This document shows, piece by piece, positions 1,444 through 9,439 of a stretch of 64,000 bases of DNA. A program made the position numbers and the translations under genes. Within the stretch, counting starts at the first letter, position 1. Each line of letters begins with the position of its first letter. The notes under the pieces were generated by a model. It saw only the letters and a program-made list of their open reading frames with translations. It was not told the DNA's origin and made no database searches. The stretch covers positions 1 through 64,000 of the forward strand of contig NZ_POTC01000001.1 of assembly GCF_002906255.1 (NCBI RefSeq), read 5' to 3'. Origin of the DNA: Novacetimonas maltaceti. GTDB lineage: Bacteria > Pseudomonadota > Alphaproteobacteria > Acetobacterales > Acetobacteraceae.

Positions 1444-2583
1444 TCACACGGGGGCTTCGATCGCTTTCAGCCGTGCTCCGGTTACCCGTTCGATTTCCTT
1501 GAGCGCCAGCCGCTCCTCCGGCGCACACAGTGACAGCGCGCTTCCCTGCCTGCCGGCACGCGCCGTGCGCCCGACGCGGTGCACATAGGATTCGGGCAGG
1601 GCAGGAATATCATAATTGACCACCAGCGTGACGTCTTCGATGTCAATGCCGCGGGCCATCACGTCCGTTGCGATCAGGACATGCAGCCTGTGGTCACGAA
1701 AATCACGCAGCGTACGTTCCCGCCGGGCCTGCGTGTGTTCGCCATGCATGACGCCACACGCCATGTCCCGCCCCAGCGCCTTCGCCAGGTCATCGGCCTG
1801 CCGCCGGGTTTGCGTAAAGATCAGGATCCGTCGCGCCGGGTGGGTGGACAGGAAGGAGACGAGCGCGGGCACCTTGCGCCGCGACGGGACGAACATGACC
1901 TGCTGGCGGATGCGGGGTGGTGGCGCGTCGGTGATGTCCACCTTTACCCGGACCGGTTTGTGCAGCAGTTTCCGTCCCAGTTCGACAATCCCGTCCGGCA
2001 TGGTGGCGGAAAACAGCAATGTCTGGTGCGTGACCGGCAGGCGTGAGGCAATCGCCATCATGTCGTCGATGAAGCCGAGGTCGAGCATCCGGTCCGCCTC
2101 GTCTACGACAAGGGCGACCGTCTGTTCCAGCGCAACCGCGCCGTCGGACATCAGGTCCACAAGCCGTCCCGGCGTTGCAACAAGGATATCCGTTCCTGCC
2201 TCCAGGTCGCGCGCCTGTCGCGCCTTCGGCACGCCGCCGATGGCCACCGTGACCTTCAGGCCCGTGCCCCGCGCACATCCACGCCATGCGCCGCCCGTCT
2301 GGTTGGCCAGTTCGCGCGTGGGCGACAGGCATACGATCCGCGCCAGATGCGGTGTGCGTTCCTGTGGTGCCGCCAGCAGGCGCTGCGTCAGGGGGGCGGC
2401 GAAGGCGACGGTCTTGCCCGTGCCGGTGGGGGCGATTCCTTCGACATCCCGCCCGGCCAGAATCGGGGGGATGGCCTGTATCTGGATGGGCGAGGGAATG
2501 CGTACCCCCATGCGCGACAGGTTGTCACCCACAGGCGTCGCAAGCCCGGTTTCGGCAAAGGAGGTGCAGGAATCTTCGGTCAT
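1444..2583 (-). CDS. DEAD-box ATP-dependent RNA helicase (RhlE/DbpA-like)
   Basis: A 379-residue minimal DEAD-box helicase for ATP-driven RNA unwinding, probably in ribosome assembly or RNA turnover. In order: Q-motif region with PSPIQIQAIP (30-39), Walker A APTGTGKT (51-58), PTRELA (88-93), TPGR (137-140), DEAD (161-164), SAT (192-194), and motif VI HRVGRTARAG near 336-345. Motif I normally reads AQTGTGKT or AxTGSGKT, so the proline at its second position is uncommon. The protein ends soon after the second RecA domain, without the basic C-terminal tail common in RhlE. It is divergent from the gene at 2659. Confidence 0.93.
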   Translation of the reverse strand: MTEDSCTSFAETGLATPVGDNLSRMGVRIPSPIQIQAIPPILAGRDVEGIAPTGTGKTVAFAAPLTQRLLAAPQERTPHLARIVCLSPTRELANQTGGAWRGCARGTGLKVTVAIGGVPKARQARDLEAGTDILVATPGRLVDLMSDGAVALEQTVALVVDEADRMLDLGFIDDMMAIASRLPVTHQTLLFSATMPDGIVELGRKLLHKPVRVKVDITDAPPPRIRQQVMFVPSRRKVPALVSFLSTHPARRILIFTQTRRQADDLAKALGRDMACGVMHGEHTQARRERTLRDFRDHRLHVLIATDVMARGIDIEDVTLVVNYDIPALPESYVHRVGRTARAGRQGSALSLCAPEERLALKEIERVTGARLKAIEAPV

Positions 2584-2658
2584 CGGGTCAAGCCATACAG
2601 TGCTTTGCCCCCGCAGGAAAAGGGAAAGGGATTGACGCTGCGATTCCGCGTACGCCAG

Positions 2659-3660
2659 ATGCGTACCATGACGAGTTCCTTCCCCTCCGATGCCGTACCC
2701 GATGACGGGGCATCAGGCCCTGTGGCAGGCGTGATTGCCGAAGACTTTGCCGGGATGAAGTCGCAGGCTTTCGGGCTTGCGCGGCGTGCGGGGCTGGAGC
2801 CTGTGCTCTGTCCCGTCAGCGTGCGCCCCGTCTGGCGTCACCTGCCCGCGTCGTGGTGGCCCAGCCCCCTGCGTGCGATCCATCCGCTACGGGTGCCCCC
2901 GGCCTGCATGAAGCCACCGGGCCTGATGATCAGCATCGGCGGCACGGGCGGGGCGGTGGGTGCGGCCATGCGGGCACAGGGCGGCCAGGTGGTGCAGATA
3001 CAGAACCCGCGCATGGACCTGCGGAAATTCGACCTGGTGATCGCCAATCGCCATGACGAGATTTCAGGCCCGAATGTCCTGCTGTCACGCACCGCGCTGC
3101 ACGGGGTTTCCCCCGACTGCCTGGCGCGGGCCCGGCGGGAATGGGCACCGCGACTGGCCCACCTGCCGCGCCCACTGGTCAGTGTCCTAGTCGGTGGGGG
3201 GAACGGGCGTTTCCGGCTGGGAGAAGCGGAAGGGCATGCGCTTGCCATGCAGCTTGGGCGGATGATCGATCGTGACGGGGTGGGCATGGCGATCACGCCA
3301 TCGCGCCGGACCAGCGCGCAGGTGCGTGAAATCCTGTCGCGCCATCTGTCGCCCAAGGGGGCATGGGTCTGGGACATGGAGGGGGAAAACCCCTATCTCG
3401 GCCTTCTGGCCTGCGCGGACGCCATTGTGGTGACAATGGACAGTGTCTCGATGATATCGGAAGCCGTGGCGACGGAGGTGCCGGTCATGGTCGCCACGCT
3501 GCCGGGACGTTCGCGCAGGATCGGCCTGTTCATGCAGGACCTGTTGCAGGCGGGGCGTGTCCGGATGTTCGATGGGCGCATGCGCGACTGGCAGGTCGCG
3601 CCACTTGATGACACGCAGGCCATCGCACAGGAAATGCGCCACAGGCTGGGCCTGAAATGA
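2659..3660 (+). CDS. ELM1/GtrOC1-like protein (mitochondrial fission ELM1 family homologue)
   Basis: A 333-residue protein of the family named after plant ELM1, found widely in alphaproteobacteria. It has a GT-B-like layout: an N-terminal half with SIGGTGGAVGAA and VQIQNPRMD, then VSVLVGGGNGRFRLGEAEGH, ITPSRRTSAQV, and a C-terminal TMDSVSMISEA plus GRSRRIGLF. These resemble nucleotide-sugar glycosyltransferase folds, but the bacterial function is not established. ATG at 2659 or 2668 is the likely start, since upstream in-frame codons run into the divergent helicase. It is 48 bp from the next gene on the same strand, so the two may be co-transcribed. Confidence 0.8.
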   Translation: MRTMTSSFPSDAVPDDGASGPVAGVIAEDFAGMKSQAFGLARRAGLEPVLCPVSVRPVWRHLPASWWPSPLRAIHPLRVPPACMKPPGLMISIGGTGGAVGAAMRAQGGQVVQIQNPRMDLRKFDLVIANRHDEISGPNVLLSRTALHGVSPDCLARARREWAPRLAHLPRPLVSVLVGGGNGRFRLGEAEGHALAMQLGRMIDRDGVGMAITPSRRTSAQVREILSRHLSPKGAWVWDMEGENPYLGLLACADAIVVTMDSVSMISEAVATEVPVMVATLPGRSRRIGLFMQDLLQAGRVRMFDGRMRDWQVAPLDDTQAIAQEMRHRLGLK

Positions 3661-3708
3661 TTCACGAATTATGCGTGTTTCCAGCAGGTAATTATGACAT
3701 AAGCAGGT

Positions 3709-5595
3709 ATGCTCGATATCCGCACCTATGATGCACGCACCGGTGGCAATATCGCCTACAAGGCATTCTCCCATCCCTTGGCGGCGGAGCGTCTGGCGGC
3801 GCTGGCGCGGGTGCTGGGCGACAGGGGGCCTGTTGCAATCTATGACCCCGCGGGCCATGCACGCACGCTTCTTGCACTGCTGCCGCACGATGTGCAGGTC
3901 GAGGGTATTTATGTCCATGACTGCGAAAAGGTAGGCGAACCCACGCCCGTCGGCCCGGCCCGGCCACTGGCCGACCTGCCGCATGCGCCCGTGCGGGTGG
4001 TATGGGCGCTGGATTTCGAGCATGAGCGGGTCTGCATCCGGCTGCGCGATATCCTGCCCGACGGGATGGAAATCTTCACGCTGGCGGATGCCCGGCTGCC
4101 TGACGACATGCTTACGGTGGCCGGTACCTATCTCAACCGCCTCAATTTCGCGACGAATTATGCGTTCTTCCGCGATGAAGGGGGGCTTTCCACCCGTCTG
4201 GTCACCACCAATTACTGGGCGCGTTATGGCGCGGGGGATGTCAGGCTCTGGCTGCGGCTGTTCGGACAGGATGGCCGCCCCCTTGCCAGCTGGGTCGAAG
4301 GTCCTTTCGCGCCGGAACAGTCGATCGTGCTGGAGAGTGGCGAGGTCCGGCATCGGTTGGGGCTGGGTGCGTTTACGGGGCAGTTGTTCATCCATGTCCT
4401 TGGCGTGGCGGGACATGATGTCGTCAAATACGCACTGGAAATCCATGGCGATGCGGCCAGCCATACCCTGTCCGTCACCCATGACGCCAATGCGTGGCCC
4501 GCCGAACGCTATGCCAACCTGCCTGCGCCACGGCGGGGCGAAGAGGTGATCCTGTGGGTCCAGAACAGCCATGCGGTGCCCATTCCCGCCGGAGCGATGG
4601 CGCTGGGCCGCATGGGGCATGACGGGCGGGCGCCGATTGAGCGGATACTTGGTCCATATGAAACGATGGCCCTGTGTGTGAACGAGTACCTTCCACATGC
4701 TTCCTGGCCGGAACAGCTTGAATTCCATGGCGGTCATCATGTGGTGCGGCCGCGTTACGAAATCCGCGCGGACAGCGGGACCCGCATCGCCCACCTGAAT
4801 GTGGAACGCAGCGACCTTGCCCATGATCCCGGGATCGTCACCCTGTCGCCGCGCTTTTTCGGGCGCGGATACCTTCTGCCATTTCCCATCCCTGATCCGG
4901 CGCGTTACCGCACGATCGTGCAACCCGCGCCGATGTCGCATGCGCTGCAGACGCTGCCGGTGCGCGTCGACTGTTTCGATGAGGGCGGCCAGCCATCAGG
5001 GGAGCGGTTCCTTGGCTGCCTTGCGCGTGGCCATGCGATCGCGCAGGACCTGTCGGATGTTGCCGGCCGGGCGGGGCATGGGGAACTGGTCTATGATTTC
5101 CGTGATGGCGGGCAGGCGGATGGATGGCTGCATGCCCTGATCCGGTACGAGGACCTGCAGACGGGTCATGTCGCGGAAACCAGTTTCGGAGCCCACATCT
5201 TCAACACGGTCATGACCTACCGCAATGAGCCGCAATCCTATTCCGGGCCGCCGCCGGGCCTGACGACGCGACTGTTCCTGCAGGCCGGTGCGGGCCATGC
5301 GCCGAGTTTCTGCCACCTGATCTATCCCGTTTCGGCCATATGGCATGATGGTTCCGAAACCGTGCTGAGCCTGCATGATGAAAAAGGCGGGAAGGTCGCG
5401 GAACAGCAGGTCAGCATTCCCGCGCGGGGATCGATGACGCTCTGGCCCCACCGGATTTTCGGGGCGGAGGCCATGGCGCGCACGGGGGCGGGGGGCTATG
5501 TCATGATCCGTGACCAGTCCTGTCGCCTGTTCGGATACCATGGCCGCCTGCGTGACGATGGCGTGTTCTCACTGGATCACATGTTCGGCTTCTGA
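3709..5595 (+). CDS. Uncharacterised 628-residue protein: Rossmann-like N-terminal segment plus beta-rich repeats
   Basis: I do not recognise this as a named family. Residues about 30-130 look Rossmann-like: GPVAIYDPAGHARTLLALLP, then a strand GIYVHD, E-K-V-G-E-P, and LADLP before another strand. This resembles the nucleotide-binding tail of some C-methyltransferases and sugar-modifying enzymes. From about 145 on, the protein is rich in predicted beta strands, in three or more blocks that each begin near a TTNYWARYG-like or MTYRNEPQSY-like stretch and end in a P-x-G-S-M/A-L segment. There is no signal peptide or membrane segment. It lies just downstream of the ELM1-like gene. A cytoplasmic role in glycan or envelope metabolism is possible, but this rests only on the neighbour. 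Confidence 0.75.
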   Translation: MLDIRTYDARTGGNIAYKAFSHPLAAERLAALARVLGDRGPVAIYDPAGHARTLLALLPHDVQVEGIYVHDCEKVGEPTPVGPARPLADLPHAPVRVVWALDFEHERVCIRLRDILPDGMEIFTLADARLPDDMLTVAGTYLNRLNFATNYAFFRDEGGLSTRLVTTNYWARYGAGDVRLWLRLFGQDGRPLASWVEGPFAPEQSIVLESGEVRHRLGLGAFTGQLFIHVLGVAGHDVVKYALEIHGDAASHTLSVTHDANAWPAERYANLPAPRRGEEVILWVQNSHAVPIPAGAMALGRMGHDGRAPIERILGPYETMALCVNEYLPHASWPEQLEFHGGHHVVRPRYEIRADSGTRIAHLNVERSDLAHDPGIVTLSPRFFGRGYLLPFPIPDPARYRTIVQPAPMSHALQTLPVRVDCFDEGGQPSGERFLGCLARGHAIAQDLSDVAGRAGHGELVYDFRDGGQADGWLHALIRYEDLQTGHVAETSFGAHIFNTVMTYRNEPQSYSGPPPGLTTRLFLQAGAGHAPSFCHLIYPVSAIWHDGSETVLSLHDEKGGKVAEQQVSIPARGSMTLWPHRIFGAEAMARTGAGGYVMIRDQSCRLFGYHGRLRDDGVFSLDHMFGF

Positions 5596-5741
5596 CGCCG
5601 TATTTCGGAATTTCCCCGCAGGTCATGCATTCGGTGCGGGGCTGGGTTTCGCGACATTCACGTAACCCCGCCATGCCCATGCGTTTCTTACCGGAGTGCC
5701 ATCGCCACGATAGAGTGATGGAATCACAAAGGAATACTGAA

Positions 5742-5984
5742 ATGACCGATTCGCATACGCCTTCCGCTACCGAACACCTGCAGAAACTCGCGGCCCGTGG
5801 CCAGCACGAGCCCAAGCTGCTGACCCGCGAGGAAGTCACCATGCTGGCCGCACATGTCGGCAAGGAGCATGCCGGGGTTGAAAAGGAAATCGCCAAGAAG
5901 GCGGAACATAACCCCGAAGGTGTGACGGCGGACGAGCTGCGCACGCTGTGCAAGCACATTCTGGGTGAAAAGAAGGTCCGTTAA
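5742..5984 (+). CDS. Small conserved-looking hypothetical protein (80 residues)
   Basis: An 80-residue, charged, mostly helical protein (MTDSHTPSATEHLQKLAARG...). AAAGGA sits about 9 bases upstream of the ATG at 5742, which supports this start over the in-frame ATG at 5718 and earlier ones. It is rich in Lys, Glu and His, has one Cys, and has no signal or membrane segment. The composition suggests a small soluble stress-type protein, but I cannot assign a function. Confidence 0.65.
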   Translation: MTDSHTPSATEHLQKLAARGQHEPKLLTREEVTMLAAHVGKEHAGVEKEIAKKAEHNPEGVTADELRTLCKHILGEKKVR

Positions 5985-6116
5985 TCCGGGCTGACGGCTC
6001 ATGCGTCCTGTCCCGGACAAGGGGATGGGGCGCAGGCACGTCCCGTAGCATAAATGCAGCAGTCGTGATCCATGCGGACGCAGGTATATGCGCCTGTATC
6101 CCAAGTCATGCCAATC

Positions 6117-6141
6117 GTCGCAGTGTTCGTATACCTGCGAC
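6117..6141. other. Inverted repeat downstream of tRNA-Val
   Basis: GTCGCAG (6117-6123) and CTGCGAC (6135-6141) form a 7-bp stem around an 11-base loop. It lies 33 bp past the 3' end of the minus-strand tRNA-Val. There is no T run on either strand, so its role as a terminator is uncertain. Confidence 0.3.
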
Positions 6142-6173
6142 ATGCACTCTATTTATTTTATGTGAAGTCCGGA

Positions 6174-6248
6174 TGGTGGGTGCGACAGGGATTGAACCTG
6201 TGACCCCCGCCGTGTGAAGGCGATGCTCTACCGCTGAGCTACGCACCC
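6174..6248 (-). tRNA. tRNA-Val (anticodon CAC)
   Basis: The minus strand folds as a complete cloverleaf. The acceptor stem pairs GGGTGCG with CGCACCC, the D arm is GCTC...GAGC, and the anticodon stem TCGCC/GGCGG carries loop TTCACAC, giving anticodon CAC. The T arm is ACAGG-TTCAATC-CCTGT, the discriminator is A, and the 3' CCA is encoded. It reads GUG codons. No integrase or duplicated tRNA 3' end is visible, so there is no sign that it serves as an attachment site. Confidence 0.97.
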
Positions 6249-9365: not shown

Positions 9366-9439
9366 TGGCTGGGGGACCTGGATTCGAACCAGGGCTGACC
9401 GGGTCAGAGCCGGTAGTTCTACCGCTAAACTATCCCCCA
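9366..9439 (-). tRNA. tRNA-Gln (anticodon CTG)
   Basis: On the minus strand the acceptor stem pairs TGGGGGA with TCCCCCA. The anticodon stem ACCGG/CCGGT carries loop CTCTGAC, giving anticodon CTG for CAG codons. The T arm contains TTCGAAT, the discriminator is G, and the 3' CCA is encoded. The U1-A72 first pair is the classic glutamine tRNA identity element and supports the call. Confidence 0.96.

What the first reader, a model, noticed from the sequence alone, without database searches (positions are those of the whole stretch)
3709..5595. Unassigned 628-residue protein with Rossmann-like head and repeated beta-rich blocks
It matches no family I know. The N-terminal 130 residues look like the nucleotide-binding tail of sugar-modifying methyltransferases, while the rest is made of several beta-rich blocks. 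This domain mix is unusual for a protein without a signal peptide.
Basis: partly seen in the sequence, partly recalled or inferred. Interest (0 to 1): 0.6.

Follow-up and report, generated by a model that had tools for sequence, protein, structure and literature searches.

The report
Rossmann-headed four-ASRAH-block protein beside ELM1
This is a real, widely conserved alphaproteobacterial protein of unknown function: a nucleotide-binding-like head joined to four copies of a sugar-binding-like beta domain, almost always encoded next to a probable sugar-transferring enzyme, so it probably helps build a cell-surface sugar structure.

Summary
Window 3709-5595 encodes a 628-aa protein that matches no Pfam, NCBIfam or PHROG model. 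It is a real gene: full-length relatives with 41-90% identity occur in about 40 alphaproteobacterial families (86 of 385 class genomes searched), with nine histidines invariant in 81 sequences. A confident model (pLDDT 88, pTM 0.90) shows a Rossmann-like head (about 13-142) and four eight-stranded beta-sandwich blocks. [quoted passage not shown] Blocks 1, 3 and 4 are in-register sequence repeats, and every block ends in an invariant His. I therefore read it as a single-chain tetrad of ASRAH (ASRT-type, predicted sugar-binding) domains, which no sequence profile detects. The gene follows an ELM1-type (PF06258, GT-B clan) gene in 68/70 Acetobacteraceae loci and 45/55 other loci, often with a 2OG-Fe(II) oxygenase gene between. 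Most likely it is a cytosolic sugar- or glycan-recognising partner of that glycosyltransferase in envelope-glycan synthesis. The architecture is well supported for three blocks; the function is inferred. New variant of a known kind.

The parts
3709..5595 (+). whole gene, 628 aa, Rossmann-like head plus four ASRAH-like beta blocks
3745..4134 (+). residues 13-142: Rossmann-like head; K18 (80/81), H22 and D46 invariant (YDPxG in place of a GxGxxG loop)
   Evidence: (Rex family Z 7.0; 3nkl Z 6.9)
4135..4491 (+). residues 143-261: beta block 1 (8 strands, helix between strands 5 and 6; strand-2 Asn N168; strand-7 K240-Y241; last-strand H258)
   Evidence: (in-register profile repeat with blocks 3 and 4); not folded or searched on its own
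4492..4824 (+). residues 262-372: beta block 2, TM1070-like; W263, strand-2 Asn N286, strand-7 R349-Y350, last-strand H362
   Evidence: (1nc7 Z 10.1, 103 residues, 3.0 A)
4858..5214 (+). residues 384-502: beta block 3, TM1070-like; strand-7 R479, last-strand H496, N499
   Evidence: (folded alone; 1nc7 Z 9.1, 101 residues, 2.9 A)
5254..5592 (+). residues 516-628: beta block 4, ASRT-like; R606, last-strand H624 in the near-invariant C-terminus DHMFGF
   Evidence: (2ii7 Z 8.9, 93 residues, 2.9 A)
2659..3660 (+). upstream ELM1-type (PF06258, GT-B clan) gene; probable start 2659 or 2668, stop at 3660, 48 bases before the finding
   Evidence: (308.5 bits)

Best explanation
It is a cytosolic, single-chain protein made of a Rossmann-like head and four tandem beta-sandwich domains of the ASRAH kind (the Anabaena sensory rhodopsin transducer / TM1070 fold), so one chain carries the same number of ASRAH units as the ASRT homotetramer. 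It most likely recognises a sugar, nucleotide-sugar or glycan intermediate through the repeated sites and serves as the dedicated partner of the ELM1-type GT-B glycosyltransferase encoded just upstream, in making or modifying an envelope glycan such as the LPS core. In many families a 2OG-Fe(II) oxygenase is part of the same unit. Shown here: the gene, its conservation, the overall architecture, the TM1070/ASRT fold of blocks 2-4 (in predicted models), the repeat relation of blocks 1, 3 and 4, and the conserved ELM1 linkage. Inferred: the ASRAH assignment of block 1, ligand binding, the physical partnership, and the envelope-glycan role.
For: The model has pLDDT 88 and pTM 0.90. Block 2 best matches TM1070 (1nc7, Z 10.1, 103 residues, 3.0 A) and block 4 best matches ASRT (2ii7, Z 8.9, 93 residues); the best unrelated row for either block is at Z 6.4 or below. 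Block 3 folded alone best matches 1nc7 (Z 9.1, 101 residues, 2.9 A), with the next protein at 7.0 and ASRT at 5.9. Blocks 1, 3 and 4 align in register by profile (z 4.7-5.6 over column shuffles). All four blocks show eight strands with a helix between strands 5 and 6 (strand 5 of block 3 is only two residues in the full model). Each block ends in an invariant His at the end of strand 8 (12 of 400,000 random placements do as well), and each has an invariant Lys/Arg on strand 7. The strand-2 Asn of ASRAH domains is N168 (80/81) in block 1 and N286 (81/81) in block 2 (PMC2739507). An ELM1 gene lies upstream on the same strand in 68/70 Acetobacteraceae loci and 45/55 others; a 2OG-Fe(II) oxygenase (PF13640) lies just upstream in 29/55 of the others. 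ELM1-type proteins belong to GT-B clan CL0113 (PMC10327509), and the one in A. baumannii is needed for the third Kdo of the LOS core (PMC10936431). In two target-less Acetobacteraceae genomes ELM1 follows two GT4 genes. ASRAH domains occur as dyads or tetrads, one family beside or fused to a glycosyltransferase (PMC2739507).
Against: No sequence profile links the blocks to PF07100, although the ASRT set used held only six sequences. The ASRT pocket residues (SHEshChhN His and Cys) are absent, and blocks 3 and 4 have Pro in place of the strand-2 Asn. Block 1 was not folded alone. ELM1 is present without the protein in 26 of 32 target-less genomes, so ELM1 does not need it. trxB also follows it in 33 of 57 non-Acetobacteraceae loci, so linkage is not to glycan genes only. 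No ligand evidence exists.
Confidence: 0.45

Rival explanations
1. It is itself an enzyme (for example a glycan-modifying transferase, lyase or hydrolase) whose active site is built from the many invariant His, Asp, Arg and Asn residues, with the Rossmann head binding a nucleotide or nucleotide-sugar.
For: Nine His are invariant in 81 sequences, with many invariant Asp, Arg, Asn and Trp. The head is Rossmann-like. Strict conservation of THDANAW, HLNVER, FGAHIFN and DHMFGF exceeds what a passive binder usually needs.
Against: No solved enzyme aligns convincingly over more than one domain. The invariant His are spread one per repeat among others, which fits repeated binding sites as well as catalysis. 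No known catalytic motif was recognised.
Confidence: 0.2
2. It is an intracellular metabolite sensor that regulates the neighbouring genes or enzymes, as de Souza and colleagues proposed for stand-alone ASRAH proteins, rather than a glycan-synthesis partner.
For: Intracellular ASRAH proteins have been proposed to act as sugar sensors through protein contacts (PMC2739507). Neighbours include trxB, LysR and Lrp genes in many families. Rex-type Rossmann domains sense NAD(H) (fold only).
Against: The stable neighbour across families is ELM1, not a regulator. In Acetobacteraceae trxB was found downstream in 0 of 72 loci, while ELM1 stays.
Confidence: 0.17
3. The beta blocks are generic Ig-like or carbohydrate-binding-module-like sandwiches that converged on the TM1070 arrangement; there is no ASRAH relationship.
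For: Beta-sandwiches often reach Z 5-8 against each other. No sequence profile support for PF07100. CBM-type domains are the next matches of block 3 at Z 7.0.
Against: Three blocks all have TM1070 or ASRT as best match, 2 or more Z units above the next fold. The helix position and the strand-2 Asn in two blocks also agree.
Confidence: 0.14
4. One reading: a relative of sugar C-methyltransferases, the head being their PF08484 tail.
For: A colinear 92-column profile alignment of the head to PF08484, YDPAGHARTLL against YGAPAKGNTLL.
Against: Not significant: probability 1.1%, z 2.4, within the range of shuffles. No PF08484 match in any of 24 members. No methyltransferase catalytic domain in the protein.
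Confidence: 0.04

Closest known systems
ASRAH superfamily: Anabaena sensory rhodopsin transducer (2II7) and Thermotoga TM1070 (1NC7), PF07100; PMC2739507
   Same: Eight-stranded beta-sandwich as best solved-structure match for three blocks; strand-2 Asn in two blocks; four units as in the ASRT homotetramer and in the amidase-linked tetrads; cytosolic like the stand-alone family.
   Different: No PF07100 profile match; no SHEshChhN pocket residues; an invariant His at the end of strand 8 of each block instead; four units in one chain behind a Rossmann-like head; linked to ELM1 rather than to sugar catabolism, rhodopsin or amidase.
Actinobacterial ASRAH dyad lipoproteins with a neighbouring or fused glycosyltransferase (PMC2739507)
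   Same: ASRAH-type domains genetically tied to a glycosyltransferase.
   Different: Those are secreted lipoproteins with two domains; this one has no signal peptide, four domains, and a different neighbouring gene family (ELM1).
ELM1-type proteins (PF06258), e.g. A. baumannii 2903 of LOS core synthesis (PMC10936431)
   Same: Functional context: neighbour gene on the same strand across most families examined.
   Different: ELM1 is the putative partner, not a homologue; it is more widespread than this protein.
Methyltransf_14 (PF08484), PglD_N (PF17836) and Rex/CoA_binding Rossmann domains
   Same: Rossmann-like arrangement of the head.
   Different: No significant sequence relation; the glycine-rich loop is replaced by YDPxG with an invariant Asp.

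Membership tests
ASRT / PF07100 | significant match to the PF07100 profile | tested here: not met
   No match in P0001 or in any of 24 members at E<=1; hhalign against six PF07100 members 0.1-0.5% probability.
ASRAH superfamily (fold level) | eight-stranded TM1070-type beta-sandwich | tested here: met
   Blocks 2, 3 and 4 each best match TM1070 or ASRT at Z 8.9-10.1. Block 1 not folded alone; its strand and helix order is the same.
ASRAH superfamily (fold level) | nearly absolute Asn at the end of strand 2 | tested here: inconclusive
   N168 in 80/81 (block 1) and N286 in 81/81 (block 2); Pro at the corresponding place in blocks 3 and 4.
ASRAH superfamily (fold level) | Trp at the start of strand 1 | tested here: inconclusive
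   W263 (80/81) lies just before strand 1 of block 2; the other blocks were not examined for it.
ASRT-like family | SHEshChhN pocket signature (His and Cys) | tested here: not met
   Equivalent positions, placed by the strand-2 Asn or Pro, are S161/V165, E279/W283, R399/I403 and S533/L537, not His/Cys.
ASRAH superfamily (fold level) | tetrameric arrangement, or dyads/tetrads in one chain | tested here: met
   Four blocks in one chain. Whether they pack as the ASRT tetramer could not be measured (no coordinates available).
ASRAH superfamily (fold level) | binds a sugar or related small molecule (itself only predicted in the literature) | not testable with these tools
   Needs purified protein.
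ELM1 (PF06258) for the upstream gene | profile match above cut-off | tested here: met
   308.5 bits against a cut-off of 27.
Methyltransf_14 (PF08484) for the head | significant profile match | tested here: not met
   No hmmscan match; hhalign 1.1% probability, z 2.4.
Rossmann dinucleotide or nucleotide-sugar binding | glycine-rich GxGxxG loop after strand 1 | tested here: not met
   The loop reads YDPxG with D46 in 81/81 and G49 in 62/81.
Rex-type Rossmann fold for the head | fold match to Rex | tested here: inconclusive
   Z 7.0, 98 residues, 3.4 A, a level that common arrangements also reach.

The most novel reading that the evidence does not exclude
A fourth, undescribed ASRAH family: a single-chain pseudo-tetramer that is the dedicated glycan- or nucleotide-sugar-binding subunit of bacterial ELM1 glycosyltransferases, so that ELM1, the 2OG-Fe(II) oxygenase and this protein form a conserved, unrecognised alphaproteobacterial envelope-glycan module.
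Probability: 0.3. Interest if true: 0.65.

Novelty: new variant of a known kind. Interest (0 to 1): 0.47.

Why it matters
The function of ELM1-type proteins in bacteria is described in the literature as ill-defined (PMC10936431). A protein that is mostly encoded beside ELM1 when it is present gives a direct handle on that question. It would also extend the ASRAH superfamily from small sensors and secreted proteins to a one-chain, four-unit cytosolic protein with its own conserved site pattern, in a family that current profile libraries miss.

Tried and rejected
Sequence searches against Pfam, NCBIfam, PHROGs and PDB gave nothing usable; weak RskA_C, MucB and FlgD_ig matches covered 20-55 residues below cut-off and were dismissed as noise. 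Whole-model Foldseek hits (complement C3, PorU, viral proteins) have TM-scores near 0.1 and rmsd around 20 A or more and are not meaningful. The first domain comparison used overlapping slices and gave trivial hits at the shared ends; it was repeated without overlaps. Head against Methyltransf_14, PglD_N, CoA_binding_3 and CoA_binding: none significant. Phage or plasmid origin: no match in either collection. Simple co-occurrence with ELM1 is uninformative because ELM1 is nearly universal; adjacency is the informative signal. An antisense ORF over 3187-4941 is the reverse strand of this conserved gene and was not pursued. No sigma-70-like promoter pattern was found in 2300-6200, which says little. 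The careful ELM1 tree did not finish; only a quick tree was used. No coordinates of the models were available, so clustering of the invariant residues in space could not be tested.

Full report
Observation. The ORF at 3709-5595 (+) encodes 628 residues without internal stop. Pfam, NCBIfam, PHROGs and the PDB sequence search give no family. The same genome has one copy. Relatives are full length: 28 of 60 near genomes, 86 of 385 genomes drawn from the class, in about 40 families. In a draw of 398 genomes from the phylum, the only hits were four genomes of the same class. There is no match in phage or plasmid collections. Identity falls to about 41% while motifs such as HDANAWP, QNSH, VRPR, HLNVER, FGAHIFN and the C-terminal DHMFGF stay. 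Nine His are invariant in 81 sequences. It is a real chromosomal gene under strong constraint.

Anatomy. AlphaFold2 with 47 aligned sequences gives pLDDT 88.0 and pTM 0.90: a Rossmann-like head (about residues 13-142) and four beta-sandwich blocks (about 143-261, 262-372, 384-502, 516-628). Each block has eight strands and a helix between strands 5 and 6 (strand 5 of block 3 is only two residues long in the full model). No signal peptide or membrane segment is apparent.

What the beta blocks are. On the whole model, residues 261-369 best match TM1070 (1nc7, Z 10.1, 103 of 116 residues, 3.0 A), and residues 520-619 best match ASRT (2ii7, Z 8.9, 93 residues, 2.9 A). Block 3, folded alone with 47 sequences (pLDDT 83.5), best matches 1nc7 again (Z 9.1, 101 residues, 2.9 A); the next protein, a carbohydrate-binding module, is at 7.0 and ASRT at 5.9. 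TM1070 and ASRT belong to one superfamily, named ASRAH by de Souza et al. 2009 (PMC2739507). Three separate blocks thus point to the same small family. Block 1 was not folded alone, but its profile aligns in register with blocks 3 and 4 (z 4.7 and 5.6 over column shuffles), as do blocks 3 and 4 with each other (z 4.8). The alignments cover strands 3-5, with a shared turn containing an invariant Gly. The ASRAH strand-2 Asn is present as N168 in block 1 and N286 in block 2 (80/81 and 81/81); blocks 3 and 4 have Pro there. The His/Cys pocket signature of the ASRT-like family is absent. Instead each block ends in an invariant His at the end of strand 8 (H258, H362, H496, H624). Random placement of nine His does as well in 12 of 400,000 trials, counting any strand end. 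Strand 7 carries an invariant Lys or Arg in each block (K240, R349, R479, R606) and an aromatic nearby (Y241, Y350, Y480, Y610; in block 4 R606 lies just before the strand). Sequence profiles alone do not connect the blocks with PF07100, so I do not file the protein under PF07100. I say it has the ASRAH fold, most likely as a distant, unlisted family.

The head. Best fold matches are Rex-family NAD-binding domains (Z 7.0) and 3nkl (Z 6.9), at a level that common arrangements reach. Profile comparison with PF08484, PF17836, PF13727 and PF02629 gives non-significant alignments to the first two (z 2.4 and 2.7) and nothing for the others. The glycine loop is replaced by YDPxG with D46 invariant. 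Nucleotide binding is possible, not shown.

Surroundings. The gene directly upstream (PF06258, 308.5 bits) ends 48 bases before it. Across loci, an ELM1 gene lies upstream on the same strand in 68 of 70 Acetobacteraceae loci (all within 300 bases) and 45 of 55 loci mostly from other families. A 2OG-Fe(II) oxygenase of PF13640 lies immediately upstream in 29 of those 55, and trxB follows in 33 of 57, against 0 of 72 in Acetobacteraceae. A typical order elsewhere is carB-greA-(Lrp, opposite)-ELM1-oxygenase-this gene-trxB-LysR; in L155 the oxygenase and this gene overlap by one base. ELM1 itself is wider: 53 of 60 genomes, including 27 of 28 with this protein and 26 of 32 without. The exception, G020, is a fragmented assembly with the protein at a contig end. 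In a quick tree, ELM1 proteins from genomes lacking this gene are scattered (8 changes), which is compatible with repeated loss but does not prove it. In two target-less Acetobacteraceae genomes ELM1 ends a run with two GT4 genes.

How it most likely works. ELM1-type proteins belong to the GT-B clan (PMC10327509). In A. baumannii one is needed for addition of the third Kdo in the lipooligosaccharide core and is argued to be a glycosyltransferase (PMC10936431). ASRAH domains are predicted to bind sugars, occur in dyads or tetrads when not stand-alone, and are tied to a glycosyltransferase in actinobacteria (PMC2739507). Put together, the likeliest role is a cytosolic, four-site sugar- or glycan-recognising partner of ELM1 in making or trimming an envelope glycan, with the head possibly holding a nucleotide or nucleotide-sugar. 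Shown: gene, architecture, predicted fold of three blocks, repeat relation, gene linkage. Inferred: ligand, partnership, pathway. Because ELM1 persists without this protein, it is an accessory to ELM1, not a condition for it.

Novelty. The combination (Rossmann-like head plus four ASRAH-type blocks, cytosolic, ELM1-linked) is not among the three ASRAH families described in 2009. A full-text search for the term found no other relevant paper among the ten listed of 19, and current profile libraries miss it. It is a new variant of a known kind of domain protein, with unknown function.

Noticed in passing
L141, L144, L145, L147, L155 and others, just upstream of the homologue: A ~210-aa 2OG-Fe(II) oxygenase (PF13640) sits between ELM1 and this gene in 29 of 55 non-Acetobacteraceae loci; in L212 it follows ELM1 in a genome where no homologue of this protein was found.
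   Followed up: partly
L208 6352-8681 (-), L209 2330-4676 (+): In two Acetobacteraceae genomes lacking this protein, ELM1 is the last gene behind two overlapping GT4 glycosyltransferase genes, a hint to the ELM1 pathway.
   Followed up: partly
window 5625-5984 (+): A 119-aa ORF right after the gene has no clear Pfam match; similarly sized ORFs sit in the same place in 11 Komagataeibacter loci.
   Followed up: no
window 6174-6248 (-) and 9366-9439 (-): tRNA-Val (cac) and tRNA-Gln (ctg) genes.
   Followed up: no
L064, L071: Contigs titled Acidobacteria and Solirubrobacterales carry copies whose ELM1 neighbours fall beside Acetobacteraceae in a quick tree; the source bins are probably mislabelled.
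   Followed up: no
G198:C55, G149:C8, G017:C166: Copies of the gene appear split in two pieces or carry an internal stop: sequencing errors or decaying genes.
   Followed up: no
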